NCBI GenBank assembly: GCA_035504415.1
Contig: DATJRY010000013.1
Location: 1 to 64,000 of the forward strand
Source: Candidatus Sulfotelmatobacter sp.
GTDB lineage: Bacteria > Vulcanimicrobiota > Vulcanimicrobiia > Vulcanimicrobiales > Vulcanimicrobiaceae
DNA: 64,000 bases
Direction: 5' to 3'
Shown here piece after piece: positions 23,204 to 31,472 of the stretch. Every line of letters starts with the position of its first letter. The stretch's first letter is position 1. Position numbers and translations under genes: made by a program. Under the pieces are notes generated by a model that was not told where the DNA came from, did not search any database, and saw nothing but the letters and a program-made list of their open reading frames with translations.

Positions 23204-24675
23204 GGAAGCACCTCGACGATGACGTTGCGATCGGCGGCGGCGAGCAGTCTGGTGTGCAGGTCCGGCAAGTCCGGATCGTTGGCGTCGACGATGGCGACCT
23301 GACGCGTGCGCAGCCAGGTGCGGTATTCGTGCTCGTGCTCGTCGGGCAGCGCGCACAGCAGAATGCGATGCCCGAACGCGTGCTGCACGTACGCGCGGTA
23401 CGCCAGCGGAGCGGCCAGGTTCCACGGCGCGACGACGATCGCGTCGTCGCGCGTCGCCGCGACCACCGCGGCGCCCAGGTCCGCGGCCGTCCGGTCGTGG
23501 CGCACGTCCCAAATGGCGCCCGAGACGAGCGCGTCGTGCAGCAGCGCCAACGCCAGGATGCCGGCGACCACGAACTGCGCGAGCGCCGGGAGCTCGCGGC
23601 CGAACGCGCGCGCCGTGCGGTCGGCGGCGACCGCGATGCCCAGCGCCGAGACGACGTACAGCGCCAACACATAGCGCTCGGGGTCGGCTTCGGCCTGGTA
23701 CGACGCGCCGAACAGCGCCGGCAGCAGGGCGGTCGCGATGAGACCGACGCCCACCAGCGGGACGTCGCCGAGCACGAAGCAGACGCCGATCAGCGCGGCG
23801 ACCAGCAGCCCCTGCGGCTCGGCGTCGGCCAGCGCGTCGCCGTAGCGGGCCTGCGCGTTGGCGAACTCGTCGGGGCTGATCAACCGCGCCAGCGTGTACT
23901 GCGGGCTCCACTCGTCGCCGGTCACCAGCGAGCGCAAACCGTCGAGCGAGCGCGGATCGTGATCGTCCCAGTACGGGCGGCCGGGCGGCACGCCGAGCGC
24001 GAGGGTCGGGTCGAGGCGATGGGCGACGACGTAGGCGCTGCGCAGCGGCAAGTAGGCGTAGGTCGCGAGCACCAGCACCGCGCCGGCCAGCAGCGCCAGC
24101 GCCGGGGCACGCAGCGGCCAGCGGCGGCCCAGGGCGATCAGCACCGCGCCCGGCAGGACCAGCACGACCGTGTCGTCGACCGCGACGGCCGCCGCCGCGG
24201 CCAGAACGGCGGCGGTCAGCGCGCGCACCTCACCGCGGCGCATCCAGCGCACCGCGCAGACCAGCGCGGCCAACGCGAGCGCCAGTCCCAGCGGGTGGAC
24301 GTCGGCGTAGGTTCCGCGCTCCCAGACGACCTTGGCGAAGGCGAACAGCCAGGCGCCCAGCACCGCGAAGAGCGGAGCGACCTCCAGCTCGAGCGCCAGC
24401 GCGGCGACCAGCGCGGCGCAGGCCGACACCGCCGCCGCCGAGAGCGCGTTCAGCCGCGCGGCGACTTCGCCGATGGCAAAGATGTGCGTCCACAGCCAGC
24501 CGGCGAGGACGTAGCCCGGATAGCCGGTGGGATAGGGGATCCCCGCGATCCAGGCAACCGTCTGGAGGTCTCCGGTGTCCCAAAATCCTACCGACGTCCG
24601 AATCGACGCGAGCAGCACGGCGAGTGGGACTGCGAACGCGATCGCGACGACGATCCCACGAGAGCGGAGGACCAA
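23200..24675 (-). CDS. DUF2723-type polytopic membrane protein
   Basis: About 491 aa, ten or more hydrophobic segments and a soluble C-terminal region (about 370-491). The DUF2723 signature is near the N-terminus: FWDTGDLQTVAWIAGIPYPT, then GYPGYVLAGWLW, with the Asp and tyrosines expected for the GT-C-like fold; related proteins O-mannosylate surface proteins in Bacteroidetes. The start is weakly defined: TTG 24675 has no SD and lies five bases from the divergent serA start. It is coupled to the second GT-C-like protein downstream, so a two-protein glycosylation system is plausible. Confidence 0.7.
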   Translation of the reverse strand: MVLRSRGIVVAIAFAVPLAVLLASIRTSVGFWDTGDLQTVAWIAGIPYPTGYPGYVLAGWLWTHIFAIGEVAARLNALSAAAVSACAALVAALALELEVAPLFAVLGAWLFAFAKVVWERGTYADVHPLGLALALAALVCAVRWMRRGEVRALTAAVLAAAAAVAVDDTVVLVLPGAVLIALGRRWPLRAPALALLAGAVLVLATYAYLPLRSAYVVAHRLDPTLALGVPPGRPYWDDHDPRSLDGLRSLVTGDEWSPQYTLARLISPDEFANAQARYGDALADAEPQGLLVAALIGVCFVLGDVPLVGVGLIATALLPALFGASYQAEADPERYVLALYVVSALGIAVAADRTARAFGRELPALAQFVVAGILALALLHDALVSGAIWDVRHDRTAADLGAAVVAATRDDAIVVAPWNLAAPLAYRAYVQHAFGHRILLCALPDEHEHEYRTWLRTRQVAIVDANDPDLPDLHTRLLAAADRNVIVEVLP

Positions 24676-24679
24676 GCAC

Positions 24680-26296
24680 GTGCAAGTACGCCTGACGACG
24701 GTGAGCGGCCTCTCACGGCCGCGCGTCGTCGTCGCCGAGCCGTTCGCGGAAGCGGGGCTGGCCGTGCTGCGCGATGCCGGGATCGAGGTCGACTCCCAGG
24801 TCGGCGGCTCGCGCGCGGACCTGGTCAGCGCGCTCGCGCTGGCGGACGGCCTGATCGTGCGCTCCGAGACGCGCGTCGATCGTGACCTGTTGGCCGCCGG
24901 GCCGAAGCTGACCGTGGTCGCCCGCGCCGGCGTCGGCGTCGACGCCATCGACGTCGGCGCGGCGACCGACGCCGGTATCCTCGTCCTCAACACGCCGGGC
25001 GCCAACACCATCGCCGCCACCGAGCAGACCTTCGCGCTCATGCTCTCGCTGGCACGCCGTACGCCGGCCGCCGTGCAACAGCTGCGCGAGGGGATCTGGG
25101 ACCGCAAGCAGCTGATCGGGTCCGAGCTGTTCGGCAAGACGCTCGGCATCATCGGGCTGGGCCGCATCGGCGGCAACGTCGCGACCCGCGCCCGCGCGTT
25201 CGGGATGACCCTGCTGGCGTACGACCCCTACATCACGACCGCGCGCGCCGACGCGTTCGGGGTCAAGCTGGTCGAGCTCGAGACGCTGCTGCGCGAGAGC
25301 GACATCGTCACCTTGCACGTGCCGCTCAACCGGCAGACGCGCGGGATGATCGACGCTGCGCACTTGCGGCTGCTGCAGCCGCACGCCTTTCTCGTCAACT
25401 GCGCGCGCGGCGGCGTCATCGTCGAACGCGACTTGCTGGCCGCACTCGACGCGAACGTGCTGGCCGGCGCCGCCATCGACGTCGTCGCCGAAGAGCCGCC
25501 GCCGCCCGGCGGCACCGGCGCGCAGCTGCACCGCCATCCGAAGGTGTTCGCGACGCCGCACTTGGGCGGCTCGACCCACGAAGCGCTGGCGCGCATCGCC
25601 ACCGAGCTGGCGCAAGACGTCGCGCGCGTGCTGCTGGGCGCGCCGGCCAGCGGCGCCGTCAACGCGCCGGTGCCCTCGGGCCCGGGCGCCGAGCGCGCGC
25701 TGCCGTTCCTCGAGGTCGCCTACCGGATCGGCCGCTTCTATCCGCAGTACGCGCGGACCGAAAGGCTGCCGCGCTTCGCGCTGGTCCTGGGCGGCGCGCT
25801 GGCCGAGACCGATACCGCGCCGGTCGTGCGCGCGTTCCTCAGCGGCCTGTTGCAGACGACGACCGACCGGCGGGTCTCGGTCGTGAACGCCGAGGCGATC
25901 GCGCAGGAGCTGGGAATCGTCGTCGACGCGCGCGCCGACGCGACCGCGTCGGCCTACGGTGCGTCGCTGCAGCTGCAGGCCGAGGGGACCTCGATCACCG
26001 GCACGTCGATCGGCGGCGCGCCGCGCATCGTCGAGCTGGACGGTTACGAGATCGACGCCACGCCGGTCGGCGGGATGCTGATCACGCAACACGCCGACGT
26101 GCCCGGGATGATCGGGCGGGTCGGAACGATCTTGGGCAACGCGCAGGTCAACATCTCGACGATGCAGGTCTCGCGCAACACCGTCGGCGGCGACGCGATC
26201 ATGGTGCTCTCGATCGACCGTCCGGCCGACGAGGCGACGCTGGCCGCGCTGCGCGCCGTCAACGGCGTCGGTTCGGTTCGCAGCCTGGACCTGTGA
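24680..26296 (+). CDS. serA: D-3-phosphoglycerate dehydrogenase
   Basis: 538 aa, first step of serine biosynthesis (3-phosphoglycerate to 3-phosphohydroxypyruvate, NAD). The Rossmann motif GLGRIGGNVATRARAFGM is near 155, with Arg in NCARGGVIVERD, Glu in DVVAEEPPPP and His in TPHLGGSTHEA as catalytic residues. An allosteric-substrate-binding domain (about 320-455) and a C-terminal ACT domain (DVPGMIGRVGTILGNAQVNI) make it the long, regulated form, likely serine-sensitive. GTG 24680 has GGAGG nine bases ahead. The opposing gene starts five bases away, leaving almost no room for promoters between them. Confidence 0.95.
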   Translation: MQVRLTTVSGLSRPRVVVAEPFAEAGLAVLRDAGIEVDSQVGGSRADLVSALALADGLIVRSETRVDRDLLAAGPKLTVVARAGVGVDAIDVGAATDAGILVLNTPGANTIAATEQTFALMLSLARRTPAAVQQLREGIWDRKQLIGSELFGKTLGIIGLGRIGGNVATRARAFGMTLLAYDPYITTARADAFGVKLVELETLLRESDIVTLHVPLNRQTRGMIDAAHLRLLQPHAFLVNCARGGVIVERDLLAALDANVLAGAAIDVVAEEPPPPGGTGAQLHRHPKVFATPHLGGSTHEALARIATELAQDVARVLLGAPASGAVNAPVPSGPGAERALPFLEVAYRIGRFYPQYARTERLPRFALVLGGALAETDTAPVVRAFLSGLLQTTTDRRVSVVNAEAIAQELGIVVDARADATASAYGASLQLQAEGTSITGTSIGGAPRIVELDGYEIDATPVGGMLITQHADVPGMIGRVGTILGNAQVNISTMQVSRNTVGGDAIMVLSIDRPADEATLAALRAVNGVGSVRSLDL

Positions 26297-27153
26297 TGGT
26301 CGGCGTGCGCCGCTGGCGGACGTTCGCGTTCGCGCTCGTGCTCCTGACGCCGCTCGCGGCGTTCGCCCAACCCGCGCCCGACCAGCCGCGTCCGGAATAT
26401 GCGTTCGATCCGCCCGAGGGCTGGGCCGTCTCCTCGCGCGACGCACACGCGACGGTGTACCGCATCGGCGGCGGCGAGCAGCGCCACGTCATCGTGATCG
26501 CGACGGCGGCGTCGAGCGACGAGGCGGCCGTCGCCGAGGCGATGATGCAAACGCTTCATGCCGACACGAAGGACGTCGTCGACGAAGGCGCGGCGACGGT
26601 CTGCGGCGGCCAAGCCGCGCACCGCTGGTCGGCGATCGGACGGATCGAGGACCGTCCCGTGCGAGTCCATCTCGTCCTGGCACCCGTCACCGGCGGCCTC
26701 GCCGGCGTCGAGTACCTGCACGCGCCCGGCGTCGCCGACCGGGCGGACGCGATGGCGGCACTCGACACGATCTGCCCGGCGCCGTTCGCATTCCCGGCCA
26801 TCGCGGGATGGGCGGCGTCGACGAGCAGCCCGGCGGGGATCTTCGTGCTGCGCGCGCCCGACGGGGCCTCGTCGCTCTACGGCAGCTATCGCCGCCTGCG
26901 GGCCGACCGTTTCCCGTCCGTGTTTCACACCGACCCGCGGGCCGTCGTCGTGCGCAGTTGGTCCGAACCGTGCGGCGTCGGTCAGTTGCTGCGTTTCTCG
27001 CTGCGCCGCGACTCCACCTTACTCGAGGTCGCGCAAGGCTACGAGCGCGGCTACGCCTACGCGTTCACCTACGAGCGAACGGCACCGGCGGCCGATCCGG
27101 CGGCGATGGCCGTCTTGACGTCGATTTGCCAACCCACCACGGTACACGACTGA
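26296..27153 (+). CDS. Exported protein of unknown function
   Basis: 285 aa with a signal peptide ending AAFA before QPAPDQ. The mature protein starts YAFDPPEGWAVSSRD, a pattern common in small beta-rich lipoprotein or LpqN-like folds, and has four or five cysteines (near CGGQ, TICPAP, PCGVG, SICQP) spaced as two pairs. The ATG overlaps the serA stop (TGATG), so it is co-translated with serA. No family recognised. No obvious link to serine synthesis. Confidence 0.6.
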   Translation: MVGVRRWRTFAFALVLLTPLAAFAQPAPDQPRPEYAFDPPEGWAVSSRDAHATVYRIGGGEQRHVIVIATAASSDEAAVAEAMMQTLHADTKDVVDEGAATVCGGQAAHRWSAIGRIEDRPVRVHLVLAPVTGGLAGVEYLHAPGVADRADAMAALDTICPAPFAFPAIAGWAASTSSPAGIFVLRAPDGASSLYGSYRRLRADRFPSVFHTDPRAVVVRSWSEPCGVGQLLRFSLRRDSTLLEVAQGYERGYAYAFTYERTAPAADPAAMAVLTSICQPTTVHD

Positions 27154-27256
27154 CTCAATCGTTCGCGAACTCGACGGTGAACAAGGAATCGGCGGCGACG
27201 GGCTTGCAGTCGGCGCGCGGCAAAGGTTCGCGCACGGCGGCCCGAAGGAGAAGCGC

Positions 27257-27883
27257 ATGCGCGTGTACGTCGCACGGCACGGCGAGACGACGTGGAATCT
27301 CGCCGGCCGCTATCAGGGACGCCGCGAGTCGGCGCTGACGGCGCTCGGGATGCGGCAGGCGTTCGCGCTGGCCGGCGCGATGGACGCGCTCGCGATCGGC
27401 CGCGTCGTCGCCTCCCCGCTGCTGCGCTGCACCGCGACGGCGAAGCCGACGGCGGAGCGGCTCAACCTGCGCGTCGAGACCGACGACCGGCTGTTGGAGA
27501 TCGCGCACGGCACCTGGGAAGGCCGCATGCGTGACGAGATCGCTGCCAACGACGGTGCGCGCTACCGCGCCTGGCGCGAAAATCCCGATCAGGTCGCGTT
27601 CGACGGCGGCGAGACGCCGCACGCCGTGCTCGCGCGCTGGCGCGACTTCGCCGGTACGCTGCGGCCGGCGATGCCGACGCTGGTGGTGACGCACGACGCC
27701 GTCGTGCGCGTCGCGCTACTGGACGGCTTGGGCGCGGACGTGCCCGCCTTCTGGCGCACCCGCGTCGAGAACGGCGCCTACGCGGTCTTCGAGGTCGAGG
27801 CCGAACGGTGGACGCTGCTCGAGGAACGGGTCGACGCGCACCTGACCGGGCTGCGCGCCGACACCGGCACCCAGGCGCTTTAA
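27257..27883 (+). CDS. Phosphoglycerate-mutase-like histidine phosphatase
   Basis: 208 aa. The catalytic motif is [18 protein letters not shown] at 5-22 with His8, the acid/base Glu lies in [12 protein letters not shown], and the second histidine is in VVTHDAVVR. An AAGGAG SD precedes the ATG. It belongs to the cofactor-dependent PGM branch that includes phosphatases for alpha-ribazole phosphate, sugar phosphates and, in Hydrogenobacter and some cyanobacteria, phosphoserine. Being two genes downstream of serA it may be a phosphoserine phosphatase. Cobalamin CobC-type activity is another possibility. Confidence 0.8.
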
Positions 27884-30300
27884 GCGGCCGCGATCGCGGG
27901 CGCCCGCGCGCCCCCTTCGCCACGCACCCGCTGCAGCAGCGCTTCGAGCTCGGCGCGCTGCACGCGGTGCGCCTCGGCGGCCGCGGTCAAGCCGCGCACG
28001 GACTCGATGTAGCTCGCGACCAGTGCCTGCTGGGCCGTGTTGTGCGCAAGGATCGCAGTGCCTTCGGCGCGGATCTGCGCGATCACCGTGAGCAGCCGGT
28101 CGTTCGACGCGGTCTGCTCGTGGAGCGACCGCGAGCCGTCGCGCATGACCGCGGTCATCTGGCCGAGCGAGCCGCTGATGGCGCCGATCGCCGTCGCTTG
28201 TTCGCCGGTGGCCCGGGCGATGTGCGCGATCTCGCGGTTGACGCCGCCGACGGCGGCCGACACCTCACCGATCGACGCCGCCGCGACGTCCGCGAGCGCC
28301 AGCGCGCTGGTCGCGCTCGCTCCCGATGCCGACGCCGCCGCCACCACGCCGGCGATGTCCTCGCGAATCGCCGCCACCAGCTCGCGAATCTGCCGCGTCG
28401 CGGCGGCCGATCGTTCGGCGAGATTGCGCACCTCGGCCGCGACGACGGCGAACGCGCGGCCGTCGGCACCGGCACGCGCCGCTTCGATCGCGGCGTTGAG
28501 TGCCAGCAAGTTCGTCTGCTCCGCGATCCGCTCGATCGCTTCGATGATGGTGCCGATCTCGGTCGAGGTCACTTCCAGCTCGCGCATCCGATCGCTGACG
28601 GTCGCGACGTCGCCGACGATCTCGCGCGTCGCGCGAATCAGCTCGTCGACGGCGGCCGCACCCTCGCGCGTCTTCTCGTCGGCCGATCGCGCACGCTCGG
28701 CGGCGTCGCCGGCGCCCTGAGCGACGGTGCGAATCGAGCCGCCGAAGGTCGTCACCGCGTCGCTGACGACGGTGACGTTTTGCGCCAGCGCGACGCTATT
28801 GGCCGACACGCTGGCCACGGACGCCACCATTTCCTCGACGCCCGCGCTCGCGACCGCGGCGTCGTTGGCCAGCTTCGTGCTCGACTCGTTGACGGCAGCC
28901 AACTGCTCGACGACCACGCGAAACGGTTTGCGCGCTTCGGCGCCGGCCGCGTCGCGCCGGCGCTGCAGGCCTTCGATGACGGCGTATTGCTGGTCGAACG
29001 CGCCGAGCGCGCCCTGCAGCGCGGGCGTCGATCGCGCGTCGGCCAGCGCATCGACGGCCTGGTCGGCGCGATTGGTCGTGCCGTCGAGCTCTTCACGAAC
29101 GCGGATCATGACCGCGGAGGTGCCGAGCCAGATCTCTTCGGCATTCCGCTCGGCCGCGATCGCCTCGTGCAGCGCGCGGCCGTACCCTTCGATCGCGTGC
29201 ACGACCTGCGAGAGGTGTTCGCCGGTGCGCGCCTGCTCCTCGAGCGCCGCGGCGGCTTGCCCGAGCAGCTGCGCCATCGAGTCGACCGACGCCAGTACCG
29301 CCGGCGCGGCTCGGACGTGCTCGGCCGCCGCTGCCGCGATGCCGTCGATCGCCACCGTGGCCTCGCCGACGGCGGCGGTGATCGCGGCAACGATCTCGGC
29401 CGACACGTCGGCGGCGTGCAGGCCGTGCTCGGCGCGTTCGATCGACGAACGGGTCGAGGTGGCGACGCTGCGCGTCTTGGCGCGTACTTCCTCGACCCGC
29501 GCGCCGATGTCGCGCGCAGACACGGCCGAGTACTCGGCCAGCGCGCGCACCTGCTCGGCGACGATGCTGAAGCCGCGGCCCGTCTCGCCCGAGCGTGCCG
29601 CCTCGATCGCGGCGTTGAGCGCCAGCAGGTTGGTCTGATAGGACAGGCTCGCGATCGTCGCCACGATCTCGGCTACCCGCTCCGAACCGGCGTCGAGCGC
29701 GCGCATCTTCTCGTCGACCAGCGCGACTTCGCCGGCGATGGCGCGGGTCGCACCGATCAGCTGCGCGACGGCCTGCGCGCTCTCGCGTGCTTTGCGTTCA
29801 CCCTCGCGCGCGCGTTCGAGACCCTCGCGACTGCGTTCCGCCGCGTGTCCGAGCGAGACTTCCATCTCGCTGACGGCCGAGTTGACGTCGGAGACGCCGC
29901 CGGCGAGCGAGGATACCGCGGCGTTCAGCTCGCTCAGCGTCGCGATCGCCACCTCGACTGCGTCGCCGGCCGCGCCGATGCTCGAGGCGAGCGAAGCGGC
30001 CGCGGTGACCCCGGTGCTGGCCGAGTCGCGGAAGCCGCGCTGCAAGCGGATCCCCTCGGAGCCCGCCTCGTCGCGCACGACCGACGCTGCGCGGACGCGA
30101 GCATAGACGTCCGCGATCTCGCCGGCCAACGCGACGAGTGCGGGCTCGGCGGCCGGCGCGACGACCAGCGCCGGCGCATCTGCGCCGGCCGTCTCGGGAC
30201 GCGAGCGCCGCCTGCGCCGCCGCGCGACCGCGACGAGACCGAGCAAGCCTAGCAGCACGGCCGACGCCGCGACGATCACCGGCGCGACGGTCGCTATCAC
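27880..30300 (-). CDS. Membrane-anchored receptor with two tandem MCP signalling domains
   Basis: 806 aa. One N-terminal membrane helix (about 5-27) is followed by a basic stop-transfer stretch RRRRRR. Nearly everything after is alpha-helical coiled coil. Two complete MCP hairpin tips are present: [20 protein letters not shown] then [15 protein letters not shown] (about 222-255), and [20 protein letters not shown] then [15 protein letters not shown] (about 595-628). They are 373 residues apart. No periplasmic sensor or HAMP domain is evident. Standard receptors have one tip per chain. The start is GTG 30300 without clear SD. The gene converges on the histidine phosphatase gene, overlapping by four bases. 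No che genes nearby. Confidence 0.85.
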
Positions 30301-30378: not shown

Positions 30379-30993
30379 TCAGTATCCCGGTATGCCGCTG
30401 GCCTCGACGGTCGTGCCGGCGACGATGGCGAACTCGGAGACCCGGCCGGGACGGCGGACGAACAGCGTCGCCGGCCGCGTCCCCGCGAGCGCGCCGAGGT
30501 CGCGTCGCGCGCCGTGCTGCGTGACGACGACGTGCGCGCCGGCCGGAACGCCGTCGGCGACGACGTAGCACCAGGCGCCGTCGCGCGCATAGATGGCCTT
30601 GGCGATCACGCCCGGCCGACCGGCCAGCGTCGTGTGCATGAAGTGCGCCGACGCCATCGCCAACAGCGCGGTGTCGGTCTGCGCGACGTGCGTGCCTAGC
30701 GCGCGCTCGTGGACGACGTCGACGCCGCCGACGACCAGCACGAAGGCCGCGGCGAGGGCGAGCGGCCACCACGCGCGCCCGCCGCGCGGGCGCAGCCGAA
30801 CGACGTTCGACCCGGGAACCGGGGGCAGCGTCGCCGCCAGCAGCGCGCCGACTTCTTCGGCGGCCCGCACGCGATCGGTGCAAGTCGCGCACATGCGCAG
30901 GTGCGCTTCGATCTCCTCGCGGCGATCGGAGAGCATGCCCAGCGCGTAGAGTTCGGCGTCCTCGCCGAGGTGGTCGGTCATGGATTCCTTCAT
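30379..30993 (-). CDS. Anti-sigma factor with zinc-finger-like N-terminus
   Basis: 204 aa. N-terminal ASD-type segment with HLRMCATC (HxxxCxxC, about residues 32-39), the zinc-binding motif of ZAS anti-sigma factors, then one membrane helix (PLALAAAFVLVVGGV, about 77-92) and an extracytoplasmic RskA-like domain of about 110 aa ending GIPGY. ATG overlaps the stop of the sigma-factor gene (ATGA). It should hold the ECF factor at the membrane until a signal in the periplasm, possibly linked to copper or redox state, releases it. Confidence 0.85.
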   Translation of the reverse strand: MKESMTDHLGEDAELYALGMLSDRREEIEAHLRMCATCTDRVRAAEEVGALLAATLPPVPGSNVVRLRPRGGRAWWPLALAAAFVLVVGGVDVVHERALGTHVAQTDTALLAMASAHFMHTTLAGRPGVIAKAIYARDGAWCYVVADGVPAGAHVVVTQHGARRDLGALAGTRPATLFVRRPGRVSEFAIVAGTTVEASGIPGY

Positions 30994-31472
30994 CGAACGA
31001 GCTCCGCGGCGAGGCGGCGCAGTCCCAGCGAGACGCGTCCTTTCACCGTTCCCAGCGGCAGGTCGCACGCCCGCGCGATCTCGCTTTGTGTTTGGTTGCC
31101 GTAGTACGCGCGCACGAGCGCGTCGCGCTGCTCGGGCGGAAGCCGCTGCAGCGCGGCGCGCACGCGCGCCGCCTCGATCGGGTCGACGCTCGGCCCCTCG
31201 TCGATCAGCGGCGCTTCGCGCGCCACCCGCTCCTCGCGCGCGCGCCGCCGCCCTTCGCGCCGCAGCTGATCGAAGGCCTCGTTACGCACGCAGGTGATCA
31301 AGAACGGCAACAGCGCGCCGCGCTCGGGCCGGTAGGCGTCGGGCGCGCCCAACAGGCGCGTGAACACGGCGTGCACGCAGTCGTCGGCCGCGTCGACCTC
31401 ACCGAGCACGTGATACGCGACGGCGCGCAGACGGGCGCGATGCTCGCGATACGTCTGCGCGACCGCGTTCAC
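30990..31472 (-). CDS. ECF-type RNA polymerase sigma factor
   Basis: 160 aa. Region 2 includes HVLGEVDAADDCVHAVFTRL and PFLITCVRNEAFDQLRREGR; region 4 is RLPPEQRDALVRAYYGNQTQ followed by SEIARACDLPLGTVKGRVSL, the DNA-binding helix-turn-helix. GTG 31472 overlaps the phosphoesterase stop (GTGA). It belongs to the SigK/RskA-type groups with a cognate anti-sigma gene directly downstream. It lies at the end of a cupredoxin/phosphoesterase operon it may itself transcribe. Confidence 0.9.
   Translation of the reverse strand: MNAVAQTYREHRARLRAVAYHVLGEVDAADDCVHAVFTRLLGAPDAYRPERGALLPFLITCVRNEAFDQLRREGRRRAREERVAREAPLIDEGPSVDPIEAARVRAALQRLPPEQRDALVRAYYGNQTQSEIARACDLPLGTVKGRVSLGLRRLAAELVR

What the first reader, a model, noticed from the sequence alone, without database searches (positions are those of the whole stretch)
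27880..30300. Receptor with two complete MCP signalling hairpins in one chain
Two near-identical tips ([15 protein letters not shown]...) occur 373 residues apart. The chain has one membrane helix and no recognisable sensor. Two tips in one polypeptide should change receptor packing: the chain could fold as two stacked hairpins or mimic a receptor dimer covalently. I know of no well-characterised example.
Basis: partly seen in the sequence, partly recalled or inferred. Interest (0 to 1): 0.7.

Follow-up and report, generated by a model that had tools for sequence, protein, structure and literature searches.

The report
Membrane-anchored chemoreceptor with two signalling hairpins
This bacterium has an intact chemotaxis receptor in which one protein chain carries two full signalling arms, most likely a receptor pair permanently joined into one chain; such double receptors were already known elsewhere, so it is an unusual variant rather than a new kind of system.

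Summary
In detail: the minus-strand ORF 27880-30300 (806 aa) has one N-terminal membrane helix and two MCP signalling domains with tips 373 residues apart. It is not an assembly artefact. The halves are 32% identical (53% in DNA), and only the universal tip motif is near-identical. The claim that no well-characterised example exists is wrong: Vibrio cholerae DosM, natural soluble single-chain MCPs and engineered Tsr~Tsr are published.
Here the hairpins come from a genus-wide single-hairpin receptor (membrane helix, no HAMP). The half-units of this gene and of one homologue in another genome form one clade. The two halves align without gaps, arms are about 185 residues, and a helix break lies at residues 423-425. 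With the membrane anchor, this favours two parallel hairpins, a covalent receptor dimer feeding the single CheA/CheW system, over DosM's opposed-tip rod; geometry is inferred, not shown. It is not DosM/F9: there is no triple CheW, and it has a membrane helix. The gene is a local insertion: in eight relatives its neighbours adjoin. Each half lost different conserved features, so the halves may be specialised.
In passing: this family is rich in double-tip receptors, including a conserved soluble MCP-DctP-MCP protein.

The parts
27880..30300 (-). Gene of the double-hairpin receptor, 806 aa, GTG start, stop 27880-27882
   Evidence: ORF and translation; codon-position GC 0.76/0.54/0.89; two PF00015 matches
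30223..30279 (-). Single N-terminal membrane helix, residues 8-26, followed by six arginines
   Evidence: hydropathy 2.73; the single-hairpin homologues with complete ends have a membrane helix in the same place
30157..30222 (-). Basic, Ala/Pro-rich, probably flexible tether, residues 27-48
   Evidence: no helix and pLDDT mostly 33-45 in the model
29035..30156 (-). First signalling hairpin, residues 49-422
   Evidence: PF00015 at 29266-29814; predicted helices 49-73, 82-236, 241-358, 361-422
29593..29637 (-). Tip 1, [15 protein letters not shown], residues 222-236; E402Q, A389S and Y373 are the rare residues around it (Tsr numbering)
29023..29034 (-). Helix break between the hairpins, residues 423-426 (RSTP)
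   Evidence: model break at 423-425 with low confidence; STP helix-cap sequence read directly
27913..29022 (-). Second signalling hairpin, residues 427-796
   Evidence: PF00015 at 28147-28698; predicted helices 426-609 and 611-795
28819..28848 (-). Methylation-type motif [10 protein letters not shown], residues 485-494, kept in half 2; the matching site in half 1 reads [10 protein letters not shown]
   Evidence: motif scan
28474..28518 (-). Tip 2, [15 protein letters not shown], residues 595-609, followed by E391A and G395A (Tsr numbering)

Best explanation
It is a membrane-tethered, sensorless, single-chain chemoreceptor. An ancestral single-hairpin receptor of this genus (one membrane helix, no HAMP, one hairpin) was duplicated in tandem and fused. 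The two hairpins, of equal length, most likely fold back at residues 423-426 and lie side by side with both tips pointing away from the membrane. One chain thus forms the four-helix unit that normally needs two chains. It would sit as one 'dimer' in mixed trimers with the cell's other receptors and contact the single CheA and CheW. Lacking a sensor, it would relay or tune array output, as filler, scaffold or cytoplasmic/membrane-state sensor. Shown: the domains, anchor (predicted), divergence, gapless arms and single pathway. Inferred: parallel packing, array membership and role.
For: Halves align without gaps from -170 to +149 around the tip, and half 2 aligns without gaps over 360 columns with the genome's own single receptor. 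The four half-units of this gene and its G093 homologue form a clade inside the single-receptor family (96/94). The model gives arms of about 185 residues with a break at 423-425. A membrane anchor at the start of arm 1 puts the end of arm 2 near the membrane, so a straight rod would have to cross or lie along it (inference). Most other transmembrane receptors of this genome have 267-278 residues from the last membrane helix to the turn; this one has 212 without HAMP, part of it a flexible tether, so reaching the same baseplate is plausible. There is one CheA, one single-domain CheW, and CheR and CheB. Engineered Tsr~Tsr fusions work when the joining segment is about 19-22 residues or more (PMC4692393). 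Both tips stayed conserved while most of the arms diverged (55% against 11-30% identity; one arm segment is 53%).
Against: The structure model is weak (pLDDT 60.6, pTM 0.37, lowest near the join) and single-chain, so it does not decide between parallel and opposed hairpins. The closest double homologue, in G093, shows no membrane helix. Each tip carries changes at usually conserved positions, so one half might be impaired. The long branches of both halves fit relaxed constraint as well as specialisation. No expression or motility data.
Confidence: 0.5

Rival explanations
1. Domain-wise homodimers: two chains pair N-hairpin with N-hairpin and C-hairpin with C-hairpin, giving two ordinary dimers tied together that fill two of the three places in one trimer of dimers, or tie two trimers together.
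For: MCPs are homodimers; subunit swapping of this kind was seen in engineered Tsr~Tsr (PMC4692393). The halves have diverged to 32% identity, which might favour like-with-like pairing.
Against: Locally (-60 to -15) the two halves resemble each other (53%) more than either resembles the single receptor (33-38%), a weak hint of shared constraint or conversion. Intramolecular pairing is favoured by proximity (inference).
Confidence: 0.25
2. A DosM-like rod: the middle of the chain is straight and one tip sits at each end, bridging two CheA/CheW baseplates.
For: DosM, the best-studied double-signalling-domain receptor, works so (PMC7534058). Equal arms fit this too. The G093 homologue shows no membrane helix.
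Against: Membrane anchor with an arginine-rich flank at the start of hairpin 1; helix break at the join; no triple CheW in this genome, the F9 signature partner.
Confidence: 0.13
3. One half is decaying: the protein works, if at all, through one hairpin and the other is a relic.
For: Half 1 lost the family's methylation motif and has E402Q; half 2 has E391A and G395A. Long branches. Lineage-specific insertion.
Against: The frame is intact over 806 codons with normal codon-position GC, and both tips kept the full core motif while most of the arms fell to 11-30% identity.
Confidence: 0.12

Closest known systems
DosM (VC1403) of Vibrio cholerae, F9 chemosensory class
   Same: Two MCP signalling domains in one chain and no sensor domain (PMC7534058, PMC9321776)
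   Different: DosM arrays are purely cytoplasmic with opposed tips and a triple CheW; here there is a membrane helix, one single-domain CheW and one CheA
Engineered single-chain Tsr~Tsr (Mowery et al. 2015)
   Same: Membrane receptor with two full signalling hairpins joined head to tail (PMC4692393)
   Different: Synthetic, near-identical halves with full sensor, HAMP and membrane parts in each; here natural, diverged, one anchor, no HAMP
Natural soluble single-chain MCPs (Rhodospirillum centenum and a handful of others, as cited in PMC4692393)
   Same: Tandem MCP signalling domains
   Different: Described as soluble; this one is predicted to be membrane-anchored. Their sequences were not compared here
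Single-hairpin receptor of the same genome, contig C11 (P0007, 475 aa)
   Same: N-terminal membrane helix, no HAMP, hairpin of the same length; aligns with half 2 without gaps over 360 columns
   Different: One hairpin instead of two

Membership tests
MCP signalling domain family (PF00015) | Profile match above the curated cut-off | tested here: met
   124.3 and 116.7 bits for the two halves against a cut-off of 34.6
MCP signalling domain family (PF00015) | Tip residues for trimer contact and CheA/CheW coupling conserved | tested here: met
   Core Q374-R388 intact in both halves; E402Q in half 1, E391A and G395A in half 2
MCP signalling domain family (PF00015) | Methylation motif [ASTG]2-x2-[EQ]2-x2-[ASTG]2 | tested here: inconclusive
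   Family site at -106 met in half 2, not in half 1; half 1 has one exact match elsewhere at +133, of unknown meaning
DosM / F9 class | Two signalling domains in one chain, no sensor | tested here: met
DosM / F9 class | Partner CheW with three concatenated CheW domains | tested here: not met
   Only one single-domain CheW plus the CheA P5 domain in this genome
DosM / F9 class | Cytoplasmic, no membrane helix | tested here: not met
   Helix at residues 8-26; depends on the start codon
DosM / F9 class | Rod with one tip at each end | not testable with these tools
   Single-chain model of low confidence
Single-chain (covalent dimer) receptor | Two hairpins of the same length class | tested here: met
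   Gapless alignment of halves from -170 to +149
Single-chain (covalent dimer) receptor | Joining segment able to reverse the chain | tested here: inconclusive
   Predicted break at 423-425, low confidence
Single-chain (covalent dimer) receptor | Both hairpins side by side in one receptor unit | not testable with these tools
   Needs crosslinking, a multimer model or cryo-ET

The most novel reading that the evidence does not exclude
A natural, membrane-tethered covalent receptor dimer with fixed asymmetry: half 1 and half 2 have divided the two jobs that identical subunits share in a trimer of dimers (axis contact versus CheA/CheW contact, methylated versus not).
Probability: 0.2. Interest if true: 0.65.

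Novelty: new variant of a known kind. Interest (0 to 1): 0.4.

Why it matters
In ordinary receptors the two identical subunits of a dimer sit in different places in the trimer, and mutations cannot separate the two roles; single-chain receptors were built for just this purpose (PMC4692393). A natural single-chain receptor whose halves have diverged would show which residues evolution keeps in each place. The wider family is unusually rich in double-tip receptors, yet this genome, like its relatives with any CheA match, has one CheA; that makes it a good place to study how such receptors fit an ordinary array.

Tried and rejected
Assembly artefact: rejected, halves 32% identical in protein and 53% in DNA. 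DosM/F9 membership: rejected for lack of a triple CheW and presence of a membrane helix. Antisense ORF 27808-30252 (+, 814 aa): rejected, its codon-position GC is the mirror image of the real frame. Relatives by pattern scan of GTDB contigs: seven distant MCPs only. Structure prediction of the full chain: too weak to decide hairpin geometry; Foldseek only confirmed the MCP fold. Flanking repeats or odd base composition at the insertion: none found. Local excess similarity of the halves at -60 to -15 (53%): noted but not relied on, several segments were compared.

Full report
OBSERVATION. The minus-strand frame 27880-30300 encodes 806 residues without interruption. PF00015 hits it twice, at 9.7e-36 and 2.1e-33. 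The tips [15 protein letters not shown] begin at residues 222 and 595. One hydrophobic helix (8-26) is followed by RRRRRR and a low-complexity stretch, and Pfam sees no sensor or HAMP. Codon-position GC (0.76/0.54/0.89) is that of a real gene.

NOT AN ARTEFACT. The halves share 32% of residues and 53% of bases, with 47% at third positions and a longest shared word of 17 bases, in the tip. A misassembled duplication would be near-identical. The tip likeness is what nearly all MCPs share.

ORIGIN. The genome has a 475-residue receptor on contig C11 with one membrane helix, no HAMP and one hairpin; other genomes of the genus, and one outside it, carry a similar single-hairpin protein, and those with complete ends show the membrane helix. 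Half 2 aligns with C11 over 360 columns without a gap, and half 1 aligns with half 2 without a gap from -170 to +149. In a careful tree the two halves of this gene and the two halves of a double homologue in G093 (770 aa, L071) form one clade inside that family (96/94), with the C-halves together at 82/86. A single ancestral fusion is the simplest reading, but all four are long branches, so the grouping is provisional. In eight relatives the phosphatase gene (27257-27883) and the anti-sigma gene (30379-31068) are neighbours, 16 bases apart where measured in G087 and overlapping by a few bases in G090; here the receptor gene sits between them. So the gene arrived at this spot in this lineage.

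ANATOMY. The model is weak overall (pLDDT 60.6) but puts helices at 49-73, 82-236, 241-422 (kinked at 359), 426-609 and 611-795, that is, arms of about 185 residues, some 26 heptads, with a break at 423-425 (sequence RSTP). Foldseek finds MCP cytoplasmic domains (2ch7, 1qu7, 3zx6) as expected. Tip residues: half 1 has Y373, A389S and E402Q; half 2 has E391A and G395A; the rest of the contact core is intact (Tsr numbering from general knowledge). The family's methylation-type motif at -106 is kept in half 2 ([10 protein letters not shown]) and lost in half 1 ([10 protein letters not shown]). These differences invite, but do not prove, a division of labour.

PARTNERS. The genome has one CheA (P1, P3, P4, P5) and one single-domain CheW side by side, and a strong CheR match close to CheB plus a second, weaker CheR match. 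Genes just upstream of CheA look like flagellar export genes from size and membrane helices, an annotation that was not tested. There is no triple CheW.

GEOMETRY. With the anchor at the start of arm 1, the end of the first hairpin returns to the membrane, and the second hairpin must then turn back (inference). Most transmembrane receptors of this genome have 267-278 residues from the last membrane helix to the turn, HAMP region included (HAMP recognised in four of ten scanned). The 212 residues here, part of them a flexible tether, can reach a similar height without HAMP. This favours parallel hairpins, the natural counterpart of the working Tsr~Tsr fusions (PMC4692393). It does not exclude the swapped arrangement also seen there, nor a rod.

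KNOWN KINDS. DosM (PMC7534058, PMC9321776) shows that double-signalling-domain receptors are established; this protein fails two of its defining features. The natural soluble single-chain MCPs cited in PMC4692393 are the nearest kind. What is new is the membrane anchor and the diverged halves; I did not survey all published MCPs for other anchored doubles.

WIDER CONTEXT. In the genus, counting pairs of PF00015 matches that share an open frame, I find 20 double receptors in nine of the ten genomes with any match; five are in this genome. In the class sample eight more lie in seven genomes of the same family and none in the other two families. The most conserved type is a soluble protein MCP-DctP-MCP; its model shows two hairpins with arms of about 135 residues flanking the binding domain (pLDDT 71.1).

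VERDICT. New variant of a known kind, interest 0.4.

Noticed in passing
L069:5463-8165 (own genome contig C15), L076:5637-8339, L103-L108: A soluble double-tip receptor, MCPsignal-DctP-MCPsignal, with a TRAP-type solute-binding domain between two hairpins and no clear membrane helix, conserved at 52-78% identity in eight genomes of the family. No published description was found in one search.
   Followed up: partly
L067:5314-7971 and L068:5559-7904 (own genome contigs C19 and C14): Two further soluble double-tip receptors (885 and 781 aa) with diverged tips and a shared C-terminal region that Pfam does not recognise; N-tips group with N-tips and C-tips with C-tips across the genus, so they are old.
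   Followed up: partly
L068:7908-8723: A 271-aa protein with two MCP tips only 132 residues apart, directly downstream of the 781-aa double receptor.
   Followed up: no
L015:286-3216 (contig C15) and L067:13685-15454 (contig C19): Receptors with solute-binding-protein domains after the hairpin: Bmp/PnrA-like (PF02608) and DctP (PF03480).
   Followed up: no
G087:C1:1310199-1310429, 2820370-2820906, 1282678-1283114: In this one-contig relative the CheA and single-receptor matches each hold an in-frame TAG and another MCP match is split, which suggests decaying chemotaxis genes.
   Followed up: no
window 24575-27883: A gene whose product looks like a SerA-type dehydrogenase and a histidine-phosphatase gene whose best NCBIfam match is phosphoserine phosphatase PspA (below cut-off) lie close together, suggesting a serine-synthesis pair.
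   Followed up: no
G088 (2 double receptors among 8 PF00015 matches): This relative has receptor genes but no CheA, CheW or CheR match; it is 86% complete, so the absence may be incompleteness.
   Followed up: no
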